Positions 44,854 to 59,734 of a stretch of DNA of 64,000 nt are shown here, in pieces. The position numbers were made by a program, and so were the translations under genes. Below the pieces are notes generated by a model, which was not told the DNA's origin, did no database searches, and saw only the letters and a list, made by a program, of their open reading frames with translations. The first letter of the stretch is position 1, and each line of letters starts with the position of its first letter. Origin of the DNA: a virus. The DNA is taken from the IMG/VR virus record IMGVR_UViG_3300023278_002893, positions 233,726-297,725 of that record; one strand, 5' to 3'.

Positions 44854-45561
44854 GTGGAAAAATGCAGACCTATTATTTTCTTGATCTTATTAGGATCGTC
44901 TTTGTTTGCGCTCTATTCGAACAGAAGACAGCCTGAGATTATACCCCCATCCCTCATCGAAGAACCAAAACTCCGGTGGTCAGAGCTATCCTTTGAATAC
45001 CGGTTCGTGGTAATGAGTGAGCTTCGTGCAAACCACTTAGTGAAGATCTGCCATGCAGATCCTGAACTAGCATCCCGTATAGTAGCTGCGGTGGAAGAGG
45101 GCGCCGAACTATACAGCTTGGATATCGATCTCGTTCTGGGTCTTATCCTGGTGGAATCTCACTGCTCTCCCGAAGCCGTGAGTTTTATGGGAGCACTGGG
45201 GCTGATGCAGGTCATGCCCGCAACTGGGAAGTTCATCTCACACTCGTTGGGATTCAAATGGTCAGGTGATGGGGTTCTTCGGGCGATAGAAAGCAACATC
45301 GCTTATGGAACTTGGTATCTACATTACTTACGGACACGCTTTCCGAAAAACGAACATGCTGTTATCGCCTCCTATAATTGGGGGCCGGAACACATACAAG
45401 GAAGGATAAATCGATCCGAGCCTCTTCCCCAAGTTTATCCGGGGAAAGTGTATGAAGCCACAGAAAAACTCCGTCAATATATCTGGAGCGACGAATACAA
45501 TAAGATATATTGGCAAGGTGTGGATAAATACATCGAGAACGCTCGAAGAGAGGGAAGATAA
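44854..45561 (+). CDS. membrane-anchored lytic transglycosylase (SLT type)
   Basis: 235 residues: N-terminal anchor (residues 6-22), then the SLT domain: VLGLILVESHC with the catalytic Glu, GALGLMQVMPATG, NIAYGTWYLHYL, VIASYNWGP. Cleaves peptidoglycan glycan strands. The anchor suggests periplasmic action in lysis or wall remodelling, but virion delivery is also possible. GGAGGT before the GTG. Confidence 0.88.
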   Translation: MEKCRPIIFLILLGSSLFALYSNRRQPEIIPPSLIEEPKLRWSELSFEYRFVVMSELRANHLVKICHADPELASRIVAAVEEGAELYSLDIDLVLGLILVESHCSPEAVSFMGALGLMQVMPATGKFISHSLGFKWSGDGVLRAIESNIAYGTWYLHYLRTRFPKNEHAVIASYNWGPEHIQGRINRSEPLPQVYPGKVYEATEKLRQYIWSDEYNKIYWQGVDKYIENARREGR

Positions 45562-45565
45562 TAAT

Positions 45566-46450
45566 ATGTTGGTAGCATTTTTTGGAGATACACATGGCAA
45601 TCTAAATATCATGTACGCCATGTCTTTGGCCTGGGAAAAAAGGACAGGCTTCGAGATAGATTTGATTGTACAAGTTGGAGACTTCGGATTCTGGCTCTCA
45701 GAAAATACTGTAGATAAGATGACCGCCAAGCACCGGAAAAGAAATAACGACCGAAGAACACAGGTAGGTGAAGAACAAAGAGCCATTTGCGGGGACTACC
45801 CCGAATACGTGCTGGGAGAACTTACTGCACCCAAGAAAACCCTGGTCATTCGTGGCAACCACGAAGATCAAGGATACCTGATGCTGAGAGAAAGGAAACA
45901 TCAGAAAGAGAATCCCGATGATTACATGAACCGGGCGATTGAAATGGTTCCCAACATCTACTATCTACCTGATGGGCATGTGGTTGATATAGAGGGTGTG
46001 AAATTCGGAGGCCTGGGAGGAAACTTCTCCTATAAGACCTTCCACACTTGGAACTACTGGGACGAACACCGAACGCTTCGTTCAAAGCGGCACGGGGGTG
46101 AGCAACGTCGCCTGAACCATTTTACACGAGATCGTTGGGAAATGCTGTCTCGTAGAAAGATGGATGTCCTGCTCCTCCATGATGCTCCCAGTGGTATCGG
46201 AGTTGTAGGTGCTTCGTCCTTGAAGGGTAAGATGCCTGAGGACGAGATGACCAGCCTTATATACGGGTCGTGTGGTAGCCCTCAGCTACTAGAGCTGATC
46301 GAAGCAATAGCCCCCAAGCATGTCTATTGCGGACATTGGCATCAGTTTCGAAAAGCGAAGTTCGGAGAAACTCACACCACTGTGTTGAATCTAACAGGTA
46401 ACCCTCCCACAGAAGATTGTATGGAGGTAATAGAACTATGCCCCGAGTAG
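45566..46450 (+). CDS. calcineurin-type metallophosphoesterase
   Basis: 294 residues. Metal-binding motifs in order: GDTHGN, GDFG, GNHED, a mid-domain LLHDAP, and GHWHQ. Hydrolyses phosphate esters or cyclic nucleotides; substrate unknown. In phages such enzymes include nucleases and cyclic-nucleotide phosphodiesterases. GGGAAG before the ATG; overlaps the next gene by 13 nt. Confidence 0.87.
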   Translation: MLVAFFGDTHGNLNIMYAMSLAWEKRTGFEIDLIVQVGDFGFWLSENTVDKMTAKHRKRNNDRRTQVGEEQRAICGDYPEYVLGELTAPKKTLVIRGNHEDQGYLMLRERKHQKENPDDYMNRAIEMVPNIYYLPDGHVVDIEGVKFGGLGGNFSYKTFHTWNYWDEHRTLRSKRHGGEQRRLNHFTRDRWEMLSRRKMDVLLLHDAPSGIGVVGASSLKGKMPEDEMTSLIYGSCGSPQLLELIEAIAPKHVYCGHWHQFRKAKFGETHTTVLNLTGNPPTEDCMEVIELCPE

Positions 46451-48986: not shown

Positions 48987-49271
48987 GTGAATGACGTGAT
49001 TGAGACTACAGGTATAGTCGTGGATGTCCTGGGTAGCAACAATTACCGGGTGGAAGTAGGTCCCGACGATGCTAGTAAGAGAACGATTCTCTGTTACCTG
49101 GGTGGCCGGATGCGCAGATATCGAATCAATATTCTTCCCGGTGATGAAGTAACAATCACGACATCCCCTCCGTTTGAACGAGGAAGGATCACCTACCGCG
49201 GAAAGAAGTTGGATCGGACAGAAAAGTCCGGGAAGCGTCCCAAGGGACGTGGTGCCCGGAGGAGAAGGTAA
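48987..49271 (+). CDS. infA: translation initiation factor IF-1 homologue
   Basis: 94 residues. IETTGIVVDVLGSNNYRVEV, CYLGGRMRRYRINILPGDEV and GRITYR follow bacterial IF-1 (GTV-E-LPN-FRVE, SGKMRKNYIRIL-GD-V, GRI-FR) through the OB fold. A basic C-terminal tail of about 20 residues (GKRPKGRGARRRR) is extra. IF-1 blocks the ribosomal A site during initiation. GTG start behind GGGAGAAGACC. A tRNA-Leu gene follows 11 nt later. Phage-borne initiation factors are rare. Confidence 0.85.
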   Translation: MNDVIETTGIVVDVLGSNNYRVEVGPDDASKRTILCYLGGRMRRYRINILPGDEVTITTSPPFERGRITYRGKKLDRTEKSGKRPKGRGARRRR

Positions 49272-50148: not shown

Positions 50149-50952
50149 ATGGGTGCCAAAGTAAAGGACGAAACACCAAAGACCAAGTTCGGTGGTGATT
50201 ACAAGACAGCTCAGATCTACAGCATGGGGTATGAGTTCGCATTCATGTCTCAGAAGCGAAAGGGTGCGGTCTATGAACAGGCCACCCCCATGGTGTATTG
50301 CAAGGACTTCCTCCACGACGCTCTCTGGGCTTTCATCAACCAGACGAATTGGCAGATCCACAGCTTCAAGTACAACTACGGGAAGAACCCGCCCTTGATG
50401 CTCGACCATACCGCGCTCGCCTTCCAGAACACCCAGTTCAAGGGTAATGAAGACGAGTTCCATGGGAAGATGGACGCGTGTTTGGAATTCCTTCGTCTCT
50501 GTGAGCGTCAGTTGAACCTGCGCCCCTCGGAGATCCACCAGGTCGAAAACAAGAACGGTCCGTGTTGGTTGGTGCTTGGTGACGCGGGATGGCAGCATTC
50601 CCCCACCATGATTTCCCTCTACACGCTCTTCATCCGACTAGGCTGCTTCCACACGCCAGGAGCTAAGCTCGAAGATACGTTGAAGTTGGCAAAGTCAGGG
50701 AAGATCAAGATCGGTCAGTCCGGCTATGCAGGCAACAACGACGGGAGCTACGTCAAGCAGGGTTGGAAGGGGATCGAATTGATCTTGAAGCACGGGATGG
50801 GTATCTGGCATCCTAAGCAGGCGGACAACTACCCAATGTCTCTCAGGGATGCCGGGCTTCATGACAACTACGGGATCGTCAACTTCACCGCCAAACGTCC
50901 CCTGGAAACGATGCCACACTGGTACCGTAAGGAAATCTGGGGCAAAAAGTAA
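50149..50952 (+). CDS. amidoligase-cassette protein, paralogue of the 53532 gene
   Basis: 267 residues, unknown fold. Shares with 53532-54284 a central region (CLEFLRLCERQLNLRPSEI, CWLVLGDAGWQHSPTMISLY) and overall length; both are the outer genes of the cassette. No ATP-grasp motif recognised. Could be a substrate-binding or ligase partner. GAAGGAG before the ATG. Confidence 0.72.
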   Translation: MGAKVKDETPKTKFGGDYKTAQIYSMGYEFAFMSQKRKGAVYEQATPMVYCKDFLHDALWAFINQTNWQIHSFKYNYGKNPPLMLDHTALAFQNTQFKGNEDEFHGKMDACLEFLRLCERQLNLRPSEIHQVENKNGPCWLVLGDAGWQHSPTMISLYTLFIRLGCFHTPGAKLEDTLKLAKSGKIKIGQSGYAGNNDGSYVKQGWKGIELILKHGMGIWHPKQADNYPMSLRDAGLHDNYGIVNFTAKRPLETMPHWYRKEIWGKK

Positions 50953-50962
50953 GGAGAGATCG

Positions 50963-51859
50963 ATGGAAGGGTGTTTCGTCGCCGGGGCCGACCCCGAGCT
51001 GATGCTGGTAGATGCGCAGGGAGTTCTAGTTAGTGCCATTGGGATCGTCCCGGGAACCAAAGAAGATCCCCATCCCCTGACTTGTGGGGCGGTACAACAT
51101 GACAATGTCCTGGGCGAGTTCAATGTCAATCCTTCGGAAACCAGTGAAGAACTGGTACACAATTTTCGGGAAGTCCTACGGGAACTCTCGGAGATGATAG
51201 CTCCTCTGTCTTTGGTGGCCAGAGCCAGTGCCGAATACCCAAAGTCTGCATTGGAAGATGACGTGGCTAAGATCTTCGGATGCGATCCAGACTTCAATGC
51301 CTGGACCATGATGAGGAACTCCGTCGACGGCACTGCTGCCATGAAGAGATTCCGATCTGCCGGAGGTCACTTCCATGTGGGAATGGCCGACTCGACCAGG
51401 GAGATGCTCGCCGATCCTTACGGAAAAGTCGAGGTCGTGAAGATGATGGATATCTTCATGGGTATTCCCAGTGTCCTTATCGACGACGACCCGACCGCCC
51501 CTGCTCGAAGGAAGCTCTATGGAGGAGCGGGCGCCCACCGACCCAAGGACTACGGAGTGGAATACCGAGCCTTGGGCAACTTCTGGGTCAGATCGCCCGA
51601 TCTCGTGGAGCTGATGTACGAGCTAGCCAATGTAGCGGTGTCTCTGACTCTGGACGGAAAAAGCAGCGAGATTATCGAGGCAGTGAGTGAAGAAACCGCT
51701 CAGCAGGTAATCAACAAATCCGATCGCTCCGTGGCGGGAAAGATCGTTGAGAATCATCTGAAGAAATGGATCGATTCCACGATCTACCAATGTCTCGTCT
51801 CTAAGTCACCAATCGCTAACATAAAGGGACTAACCTTGAAAGAGGCCTGGGGAATCTAG
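50963..51859 (+). CDS. COOH-NH2 ligase (phiEco32 type 2 amidoligase)
   Basis: 298 residues. GADPELMLVD, AIGIVPGTKEDPH, GAVQHDNVLGEFNV, AGGHFHVGMAD, EYRALGNFW match the phage phiEco32-like COOH-NH2 ligase family of the glutamine-synthetase-like fold. It joins a carboxylate to an amine using ATP, forming an amide or peptide bond. Substrate unknown. AAGGAGAG before the ATG; TAGTG overlap with the next gene. Confidence 0.88.
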   Translation: MEGCFVAGADPELMLVDAQGVLVSAIGIVPGTKEDPHPLTCGAVQHDNVLGEFNVNPSETSEELVHNFREVLRELSEMIAPLSLVARASAEYPKSALEDDVAKIFGCDPDFNAWTMMRNSVDGTAAMKRFRSAGGHFHVGMADSTREMLADPYGKVEVVKMMDIFMGIPSVLIDDDPTAPARRKLYGGAGAHRPKDYGVEYRALGNFWVRSPDLVELMYELANVAVSLTLDGKSSEIIEAVSEETAQQVINKSDRSVAGKIVENHLKKWIDSTIYQCLVSKSPIANIKGLTLKEAWGI

Positions 51860-57167: not shown

Positions 57168-57355
57168 TGAATTGGATTAATCGGGCTGATGAAATACCTC
57201 CTGATATGGTGCGAATCTTGGTATTCAGCCCCGAGCATGAAGAAGGGCATTCGATGCGATACAGGGTCATGGATAGTCAGTTCTTCCACCTCTCAGGAGA
57301 CGGAACCCACTGGGCATTGCTTGAACCTCCTAGCTCCGATAGCTCAGTAGGATAG
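57167..57355 (+). CDS. DUF551-like protein overlapping a tRNA
   Basis: 62 residues: NWINRADEIPPDMVRILVF and THWALLEPP match the DUF551 pattern (W...P...VLV, ITHW..LP.PP), phage-common, unknown role. The last seven codons and stop are inside tRNA-Arg(CCT). Confidence 0.68.
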   Translation: MNWINRADEIPPDMVRILVFSPEHEEGHSMRYRVMDSQFFHLSGDGTHWALLEPPSSDSSVG

Positions 57356-57406
57356 AGCGTCGGTTTCCTAAACCGTAGGCCGGGGGTTCGAATCCTCCTC
57401 GGAGCA
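57333..57406 (+). tRNA. tRNA-Arg (CCT)
   Basis: Acceptor GCTCCGA/TCGGAGC, anticodon loop TTCCTAA with CCT, T arm GGGGG-TTCGAAT-CCTCC with one weak pair. CCA is not encoded (ACAA follows), unlike most others here. Confidence 0.9.
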
Positions 57407-57410
57407 CAAA

Positions 57411-57704: not shown

Positions 57705-58361
57705 GTGAGACGCCGAATAAAGTGGTATTTGGATCAACGTGTTGCGATCGCGAATGTGCCTGGAGGAGGTCAGCCGCAAAGATTCGAATGGAAAGACATC
57801 CCCCGGCCGCGAATCGATCCAAATGATGCAAGCAGGGGGTTTCGAGACTTCCGCAAAGGCGAGAATCGGGTATTTCTCCATTGGGGATCTGGCGATGGTG
57901 GAATTGGAACCGTGGACGATTTCTTGGATGAAGTAGAACTTCAAACGTACATTATCCGTTTAGTCTATGATATCCAAAGCAGGCACCTAATTCCTTCGGA
58001 AATCCTCGCAGATGCTAAGTTGGTCTACGAAAATCATTCTTGGGTGGATTCTTGGTCGCGTCGCCGTAATACAAATGGAAAGATTATCTATACGGATGCG
58101 ACGATTTGTCCCCCACCGAATCGCCATATCCAGTTTTCGGGGTACTGTAATAATCCGATCGGTAGGAATGTAAGATCATCAGTCCAAAGAGCGCAGAGGA
58201 GAACAAGAGTTATTGGAAAAATACACTCGGCGCAGAAAAAAGTAGAAATACCGGAAATTCCCGACGATGCGTGCTTTTTCGCCTTCAAAGCGGGTGCTTT
58301 TTATGAAAAAGATCAAAAACCTGGAAAATCTGCTTGCCGCGAAGAAGAAAAACAAGTATAA
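57705..58361 (+). CDS. hypothetical protein (GTG start)
   Basis: 218 residues, basic and aromatic, FEWKDIPRPRIDPNDASRG and CFFAFKAGAFYEK near the ends; not recognised. GGAGAAGGT before the GTG, just after the tRNA. In frame with the membrane ORF upstream. Confidence 0.65.
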   Translation: MRRRIKWYLDQRVAIANVPGGGQPQRFEWKDIPRPRIDPNDASRGFRDFRKGENRVFLHWGSGDGGIGTVDDFLDEVELQTYIIRLVYDIQSRHLIPSEILADAKLVYENHSWVDSWSRRRNTNGKIIYTDATICPPPNRHIQFSGYCNNPIGRNVRSSVQRAQRRTRVIGKIHSAQKKVEIPEIPDDACFFAFKAGAFYEKDQKPGKSACREEEKQV

Positions 58362-58372
58362 TTGTTGTGCTT

Positions 58373-58446
58373 GGCGATGTAGCTCAGCTTGGAAGAGCGT
58401 CCCCTTCATATGGGGAAGGTCGGGATTTCGAAATTCCCCATCGCCA
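58373..58446 (+). tRNA. tRNA-Met (CAT), elongator type
   Basis: Acceptor GGCGATG/CATCGCC with normal G1-C72, D stem GCTC/GAGC, anticodon loop TTCATAT with CAT, CCA not encoded. A lysidine-modified tRNA-Ile with CAT cannot be excluded. Confidence 0.9.
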
Positions 58447-58471: not shown

Positions 58472-58723
58472 ATGAGTTATTGCAGAAATAACGGAATCAA
58501 CAGTGACGTTTATGTCATCGCAACCAAAAACGGTGAAAAAGAGGTATGGGAGTGCGTAGGATGCACCCTAACGGAAAGAAGATACGGAAAGACCCTTGAT
58601 ACCCGATCGAAGATGCTGACCCACCTGGAGCATCACAGGGTTTTGGGCGATAAAGTTCCCATTTGTGCCACATCAAGGCTACAACGGGAAATACAAGAAA
58701 TGTTAAGCAACGACATAGAATGA
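58472..58723 (+). CDS. hypothetical protein with CVGC motif
   Basis: 83 residues: one CVGC pair and a later Cys and His residues (HLEHH), perhaps a zinc site. AAAAGGGAAC before the ATG. Not recognised. Confidence 0.65.
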   Translation: MSYCRNNGINSDVYVIATKNGEKEVWECVGCTLTERRYGKTLDTRSKMLTHLEHHRVLGDKVPICATSRLQREIQEMLSNDIE

Positions 58724-58734
58724 ATACAATTTGA

Positions 58735-58809
58735 CGCGGAATAGAGAAGTCAGGTCATCTCATCAGGTTCATAACCTGAAAATCGGAGGTTCAAATCCTT
58801 CTTCCGCTA
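58735..58809 (+). tRNA. initiator-like tRNA-fMet (CAT)
   Basis: CGCGGAA pairs with TTCCGCT except that C1 faces T72, an unpaired acceptor end as in bacterial initiator tRNA; the D stem GAGA/TCTC has A11-T24, another initiator mark; anticodon stem TCAGG-TTCATAA-CCTGA has two of the three G-C pairs. CCA not encoded. Distinct from the elongator tRNA-Met 290 nt upstream. Confidence 0.8.
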
Positions 58810-59482: not shown

Positions 59483-59734
59483 ATGAAAGAAGTATTATAC
59501 TTTTCAGCTAACTGGTGTGTGCCCTGTAAGCAGATGAAGCCAATCGTAAAGCAAGTCGAAGAAGCCACGGGTGTGTCTTTCAGATTACTGGATGCGGATA
59601 CCGAATCAGAGCTGTCATTCACACATAAGGTCAGAGCGGTACCAACTTTCGTCTATCTAGAAGACGGAGTAGAGATTTCCCGCGCCACTGGCGCGCAAAC
59701 AGCAAACGAGCTGACATCTGCCTTGTCGCTCTAA
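59483..59734 (+). CDS. thioredoxin-like protein
   Basis: 83 residues, shorter than host thioredoxin. Active site WCVPCK, then VRAVPTFVYLEDG with the cis-Pro, the order of a thioredoxin fold. Could reduce phage ribonucleotide reductase or other disulfides. AAGGAGAG before the ATG. Confidence 0.9.
   Translation: MKEVLYFSANWCVPCKQMKPIVKQVEEATGVSFRLLDADTESELSFTHKVRAVPTFVYLEDGVEISRATGAQTANELTSALSL

What the first reader, a model, noticed from the sequence alone, without database searches (positions are those of the whole stretch)
58735..58809. Initiator-like tRNA-fMet beside an elongator tRNA-Met
C1 faces T72 (no pair) and D-stem A11-T24 is present, both identity marks of bacterial initiator tRNA; anticodon stem has two of three G-C pairs. 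The elongator at 58373 has a normal G1-C72. Combined with the IF-1 homologue it suggests control of initiation; many genes here start with GTG, TTG or perhaps ATT.
Basis: partly seen in the sequence, partly recalled or inferred. Interest (0 to 1): 0.7.

Follow-up and report, generated by a model that had tools for sequence, protein, structure and literature searches.

The report
Jumbo phage's own initiator tRNA gene
A very large bacterial virus carries its own copy of the special tRNA that starts every bacterial protein, as part of a nearly complete private tRNA set, plus a small initiation factor; both things are already known from other large phages, so this is a well-supported new example and not a new kind of system.

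Summary
Window 58735-58809 is a tRNA gene (ARAGORN; Rfam 60.5 bits) with C1xU72 unpaired, A11-U24, G2-C71/C3-G70/G4-C69, CAU anticodon and A29-U41/G30-C40/G31-C39. Class-specific covariance models built here type it as initiator: 76.0 bits, against 58.9 for elongator Met and 49.6 for Ile2. Its neighbour at 58373 is typed as elongator Met (70.1, against 57.8 and 57.4). The window lies in a 297,725-bp tailed-phage record with 29 tRNAs, a CCA-adding enzyme and a real IF-1 (window 48987-49271). No IF-3, MetRS, formyltransferase or deformylase was found. "Two of three GC" is not unusual: A29-U41 is common in alphaproteobacterial and verrucomicrobial initiators. The unusual-start-codon suggestion fails: about 75% ATG, and ATT shows no Shine-Dalgarno enrichment. 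Initiator-type tRNAs are widespread in phages (phi92, Atu_ph07, Caulobacter phages, 735-kb phages), and huge-phage IF1 is published. Most likely host enzymes charge and formylate it, keeping fMet-tRNA available during infection. One detail is less ordinary: U32 in the anticodon loop, against C32 in 119 of 119 comparable bacterial initiators, recurs in 45 IMG/VR initiator-like tRNAs and could reflect evasion of tRNA-cutting defences. Verdict: new member of a known kind, modest interest.

The parts
58735..58809 (+). initiator-type tRNA (tRNA-fMet), anticodon CAU; positions 1-73, with CAA and not CCA at 74-76
   Evidence: ARAGORN, Rfam 60.5 bits, initiator model 76.0 bits against 58.9 and 49.6, sequence
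58373..58446 (+). elongator-type tRNA-Met, anticodon CAU
   Evidence: ARAGORN; elongator model 70.1 bits against initiator 57.8 and Ile2 57.4
48987..49271 (+). IF-1 homologue, 94 aa, GTG start, basic C-terminal tail (KRPKGRGARRRR)
   Evidence: PF01176 52.3 bits, E 4.5e-14; sequence with upstream GGGAGAAG
58334..58362 (+). promoter-like TTGCCG-17-TATAAT ending 10 nt before tRNA-Met(e); could drive the Met(e)-ORF-Met(i) stretch (consensus match only)
   Evidence: 7 promoter-like sites found against 2.8 +/- 1.7 in shuffles
58472..58723 (+). 83-aa ORF of unknown function between the two Met tRNAs
   Evidence: no Pfam match; position

Best explanation
A tailed jumbo phage encodes a genuine bacterial-type initiator tRNA. 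Shown: the gene, its class, the MTF and P-site determinants in its sequence, and its place in a set of 29 tRNAs with a CCA-adding enzyme and IF-1. Inferred: it is transcribed with its neighbours, trimmed at its 3' CAA end and given CCA by the phage's or host's nucleotidyltransferase. Host MetRS then charges it (CAU anticodon) and host Fmt formylates it (1x72 mismatch, G2-C71, C3-G70, G4-C69, A11-U24). It binds IF2 and the P site and keeps fMet-tRNA available for phage protein synthesis while host tRNA genes or tRNAs are lost or cut.
For: Initiator model 76.0 bits, 17 bits above elongator Met. Held-out phage initiators give the same ordering. The formylation determinants match those in PMC9976931 and PMC7949028. 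The record is a tailed phage (terminase large subunit, phage DNA polymerase, clamp, DnaB) with 29 tRNAs covering 17 amino acids, including Ile(GAT) and Ile(TAT), so no CAU Ile2 is needed. CCA-adding enzyme: PolyA_pol 68.9 bits plus the RNA-binding, HD and NucTran2 domains. A second IMG/VR record carries the identical stretch. Many phages carry the same class of tRNA.
Against: No expression or charging data. The host is unknown. The gene differs from typical bacterial initiators in A13-U22, a 10-nt D loop, U32 and no templated CCA; its best identity to the bacterial initiators compared is 83%. It could be transcribed but poorly used.
Confidence: 0.82

Rival explanations
1. It is a defence-resistant replacement. 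Host anticodon nucleases such as VapC cut the host initiator tRNA during infection, and the phage copy, altered in its anticodon loop (U32) and elsewhere, resists the cut.
For: U32 is absent from 119 of 119 bacterial A29-U41 initiators matched with N at position 32 and from every listed C/T-32 match (about 150) in a Pseudomonadota sample. It is present in 45 initiator-like tRNAs of IMG/VR and in phi92 and LR745208. The general hypothesis is published (PMC10264068).
Against: The same paper finds that phages generally avoid encoding tRNA-fMet where host VapC targets it. No host and no nuclease is identified. Position 32 has not been shown here to matter for cleavage.
Confidence: 0.2
2. Active takeover of initiation: phage IF-1 and phage initiator tRNA together bias ribosomes toward phage mRNAs or non-AUG starts.
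For: IF-1 is present. It has a basic C-terminal tail that extends past the Pfam domain. One other IF-1-bearing huge phage, LR756511, also has an initiator-like tRNA.
Against: Start codons are ordinary and ATT is not enriched. IF-1 and initiator tRNA mostly occur apart: 11 of 12 initiator-bearing phages lack IF-1, and Phosso has IF-1 but its best initiator-model hit is tRNA-Pro.
Confidence: 0.12
3. It is a second elongator Met or a lysidine-type tRNA-Ile2 that only looks like an initiator.
For: The CAU anticodon is shared by all three classes, and ARAGORN calls both genes tRNA-Met.
Against: Models: initiator 76.0, elongator 58.9, Ile2 49.6 bits. C1xU72 and A11-U24 are wrong for both elongator classes. 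tRNA-Ile(TAT) is already present.
Confidence: 0.04
4. It is captured host DNA or an integration-site remnant with no function in the phage.
For: fMet genes are known prophage integration sites (own knowledge), and some IMG/VR single-tRNA hits may be of this kind.
Against: It sits inside a phage tRNA-rich region interleaved with phage ORFs. The sequence is diverged from every bacterial initiator compared (at most 83%), and its 22-nt arm was found in none of the GTDB species contigs scanned. The record has phage replication and packaging genes.
Confidence: 0.04

Closest known systems
Bacterial initiator tRNA-fMet, A29-U41 form of Alphaproteobacteria and Verrucomicrobiota
   Same: 1x72 mismatch, G2-C71/C3-G70/G4-C69, A11-U24, A29-U41 G30-C40 G31-C39, CAU, A37 A38, TTCAAAT loop
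   Different: U72 instead of the usual A72 (U72 also occurs in bacteria), A13-U22, 10-nt D loop, U32, A-rich variable loop (AAATC), no templated CCA
Phage initiator-type tRNAs of phi92, Agrobacterium phage Atu_ph07, Caulobacter phages (CcrRogue, CcrPW), S-CRM01, Myrna, phiAS5, 735-kb LR756501
   Same: initiator features in phage tRNA arrays; the annotators of CcrPW and JohannJBalmer wrote tRNA-fMet
   Different: about 73-82% identity over the BLAST-matched part; most of these phages lack IF-1
Huge-phage translation kit (Al-Shayeb et al. 2020, PMC7162821)
   Same: large tRNA sets, IF1, CCA-adding enzyme
   Different: in the passages read the paper does not single out initiator tRNA; this record lacks several kit members tested (IF-3, MetRS, PDF)
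Bacterial IF-1 (PF01176)
   Same: whole domain matched, ending in the GRITYR motif
   Different: about 33-44% identity to the nearest phage-collection hits; basic C-terminal tail of about 20 residues

Membership tests
bacterial initiator tRNA (tRNA-fMet) | no Watson-Crick pair at 1-72 | tested here: met
   C1xU72 (alignment)
bacterial initiator tRNA (tRNA-fMet) | formylation determinants G2-C71, C3-G70, G4-C69, A73 and A11-U24 | tested here: met
   all present in sequence; determinants from PMC9976931 and PMC7949028
bacterial initiator tRNA (tRNA-fMet) | three G-C pairs 29-31/39-41 in the strict form; natural initiators with A29-U41 are accepted members | tested here: inconclusive
   A29-U41, then two G-C pairs: the strict 3GC form is absent, but A29-U41 is a common natural form in bacterial initiators (119 or more bacterial stretches; many Pseudomonadota matches), so it does not exclude membership
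bacterial initiator tRNA (tRNA-fMet) | scores best with an initiator model | tested here: met
   76.0 bits against 58.9 (elongator) and 49.6 (Ile2)
bacterial initiator tRNA (tRNA-fMet) | is methionylated, formylated, and initiates | not testable with these tools
   needs biochemistry
elongator tRNA-Met (for 58735) | 1-72 pair and Y11-R24 | tested here: not met
   C1xU72, A11-U24
elongator tRNA-Met (for 58373) | scores best with the elongator model; 1-72 paired | tested here: met
   70.1 against 57.8 and 57.4 bits; G1-C72
tRNA-Ile2 (CAU, lysidine) | C4-G69 and C5-G68, best score with Ile2 model | tested here: not met
   neither tRNA; scores 49.6 and 57.4 bits
IF-1 (PF01176) | full-length domain above curated cut-off | tested here: met
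   52.3 bits, cut-off 30.2, profile 1-64 of 64

The most novel reading that the evidence does not exclude
The phage initiator tRNA is specialised and not merely a supplement. Its U32 loop (absent from the bacterial initiators compared but recurrent in viral ones), untemplated CCA and co-resident IF-1 and CCA-adding enzyme form a phage initiation module that stays active when host initiator tRNA is cleaved.
Probability: 0.12. Interest if true: 0.6.

Novelty: new member of a known kind. Interest (0 to 1): 0.3.

Why it matters
Initiator tRNA is needed once per protein and decodes no internal codon, so codon-usage compensation cannot explain why a phage carries one. Phages that encode it are therefore good test cases for rival ideas: supply after host shut-off, defence evasion, or takeover of initiation. 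The recurrent U32 change gives a specific, testable handle.

Tried and rejected
1. Unusual start codons (ATT): no Shine-Dalgarno enrichment. 2. Formyltransferase, deformylase, IF-3 and MetRS in the record: none found. 3. "Two of three GC pairs" as an oddity: it is a common form in several bacterial groups. 4. Exact 22-nt arm in bacterial genomes, to find a host: none. 5. Close DNA relatives of the region in INPHARED: only a 58-nt tRNA-Asp match. 6. Close IF-1 relatives in IMG/VR: only the same virus. 7. Intron-containing tRNAs for the missing Gly, Val and Trp: none. 8. BLAST typing of the elongator against E. coli: no match. 10. I first took the best initiator-model hit in Phosso for an initiator; it is tRNA-Pro.

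Full report
WHAT WAS CHECKED. ARAGORN finds 15 tRNAs in the window, among them tRNA-Met(CAT) at 58373 and 58735. Rfam gives 60.5 bits for 58735-58809. It also shows G2-C71, C3-G70, G4-C69 and A73, the minor determinants for methionyl-tRNA formyltransferase listed in PMC9976931, and see PMC7949028.

WHERE IT LIES. The window is the last 64 kb of a 297,725-bp IMG/VR virus record. A second record (IMGVR_UViG_3300023278_003531, 196,567 bp) carries the same DNA without a mismatch over 13.4 kb, so the locus is not an isolated assembly accident. The record holds a terminase large subunit, phage DNA polymerase, DnaB-type helicase, sliding clamp, Dda-like helicase and ribonucleotide reductase: a tailed jumbo phage. 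It has 29 tRNAs for 17 amino acids (none found for Gly, Val or Trp), all on one strand, at the two ends of the linear record. They would form one region if the genome is circular or circularly permuted (the joining is inference).

TYPING TEST. I built three covariance models from bacterial tRNAs only: initiators (18 sequences), elongator Met (12) and Ile2 (11). The tRNA at 58735 scores 76.0, 58.9 and 49.6 bits in that order; the one at 58373 scores 57.8, 70.1 and 57.4. Twelve phage loci that were not used to build the models served as held-out controls: their initiator-like tRNAs scored higher with the initiator than with the elongator model (for example Myrna 95.2 against 71.8, CcrPW 97.6 against 69.3). 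The initiator set was collected partly with an A29-U41 pattern, which favours that feature, but the margin also rests on 1-72, the D stem and other positions. The presence of tRNA-Ile(TAT) in the record removes the need for a CAU Ile2.

"TWO OF THREE GC". The A29-U41 form is also common in a Pseudomonadota sample. So this feature is ordinary. It hints weakly at the host range and says nothing firm, since viral initiators of several kinds show it too (48 of 115).

IF-1 AND OTHER INITIATION GENES. Window 48987-49271 encodes a 94-aa IF-1 (52.3 bits) with a basic tail. No PDF, formyltransferase, IF-3 or MetRS family was found; the record may be incomplete. A CCA-adding enzyme is encoded at record position 44945-46426. 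Of 14 other phage records searched, two carry IF-1: Sinorhizobium phage Phosso and the 595-kb LR756511. LR756511 also has an initiator-like CAU tRNA (77.1 bits), while Phosso's best initiator-model hit is a tRNA-Pro. Coupling of IF-1 with initiator tRNA is therefore not a rule.

START CODONS. A simple ORF caller over the record gives 242 ATG, 44 GTG and 36 TTG. In-frame ATT near ORF starts has an upstream Shine-Dalgarno-like motif in 8.8% of cases, below the background of 11.1%, while ATG has one in 37.9%. The caller is crude and gives ATG a small bonus, but the ATT test does not depend on that.

KNOWN RELATIVES. BLAST against INPHARED finds 213 records with similarity; these are not all initiators. 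The twelve inspected initiator-bearing phages are phi92, Atu_ph07, CcrRogue, CcrPW, Bajun, S-CRM01, Myrna, phiAS5, Vibrio D479, LR756501 (735 kb), LR745208 and LR756511. One INPHARED hit labelled Acinetobacter phage is bacterial contamination. The Erwinia jumbo phage paper names tRNA-fMet (PMC7760394). IF1, IF3 and the CCA-adding enzyme in huge phages are published (PMC7162821). So the kind is known.

A LESS ORDINARY DETAIL. The anticodon loop is TTCATAA (U32). All 119 bacterial A29-U41 initiators have C32, and so do all listed matches of a C/T pattern in 200 Pseudomonadota genomes (list cut at about 150). In IMG/VR the T32 pattern gives 57 stretches, of which 45 (the window's own virus included) are CAU tRNAs with initiator features; phi92 and LR745208 share it. 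Some of those IMG/VR contigs could be host DNA. U32 thus looks like a recurrent phage variant. Whether it blunts anticodon nucleases, as proposed for other phage tRNAs (PMC10264068), changes the 32-38 pair in the P site, or is drift is not decided here.

3' END. Twenty-two of the 29 tRNAs have a templated CCA. The other seven, including both Met tRNAs, read CAA at 74-76 and run into purine-rich, often Shine-Dalgarno-like sequence of the next gene. By analogy with T4 tRNAs whose non-CCA ends are trimmed before CCA addition (own knowledge), these would need trimming and the CCA enzyme.

VERDICT. It is a real initiator tRNA gene of a jumbo phage and a new member of a known kind. Its function is inferred as supply of fMet-tRNA during infection; specialised control of initiation is not excluded but lacks positive evidence.

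Noticed in passing
G000:C1:1116-1192 (locus L010, outside the window): A tRNA with an 8-nt anticodon loop (CTTTCAAT; ARAGORN 'ttca'): possibly Glu UUC, an opal/Trp-like UCA tRNA or a frameshift type. Trp is otherwise missing from the set.
   Followed up: no
Seven tRNAs of the record, in the window 57333-57407 (Arg-CCT), 58373 and 58735: Positions 74-76 read CAA instead of CCA and run straight into purine-rich, often Shine-Dalgarno-like sequence of the next gene, while 22 other tRNAs have a templated CCA. The phage carries its own CCA-adding enzyme (L012:4945-6426).
   Followed up: partly
L011:6725-9898 (+), G000:C1:26725-29898: A 1057-aa protein with weak matches to phage RNA polymerase beta-subunit families (E about 1e-6): a possible diverged phage RNA polymerase.
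   Followed up: no
window 59483-59734: A short thioredoxin (83 aa, PF00085 56.6 bits) between tRNA-Asp and tRNA-Glu.
   Followed up: no
window 50849-51859: phiEco32-like COOH-NH2 ligase family protein (PF14395, 53.4 bits).
   Followed up: no
L027:1396-1660 (735-kb phage LR756501): Three adjacent CAU tRNAs that all look initiator-like, one with an extended variable region.
   Followed up: no
L025:1840-1926, L033:2031-2117, L030:1720-1804 (Caulobacter and Brevundimonas phages): CAU-anticodon tRNAs with long, Leu/Ser-like variable arms next to the initiator tRNA.
   Followed up: no
L028 (INPHARED CAKLQF020000005, 'Acinetobacter phage MD-2021a'): The stretch carries tpiA, secG, rimP and nusA beside the tRNA hit: bacterial chromosome deposited as a phage record.
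   Followed up: partly
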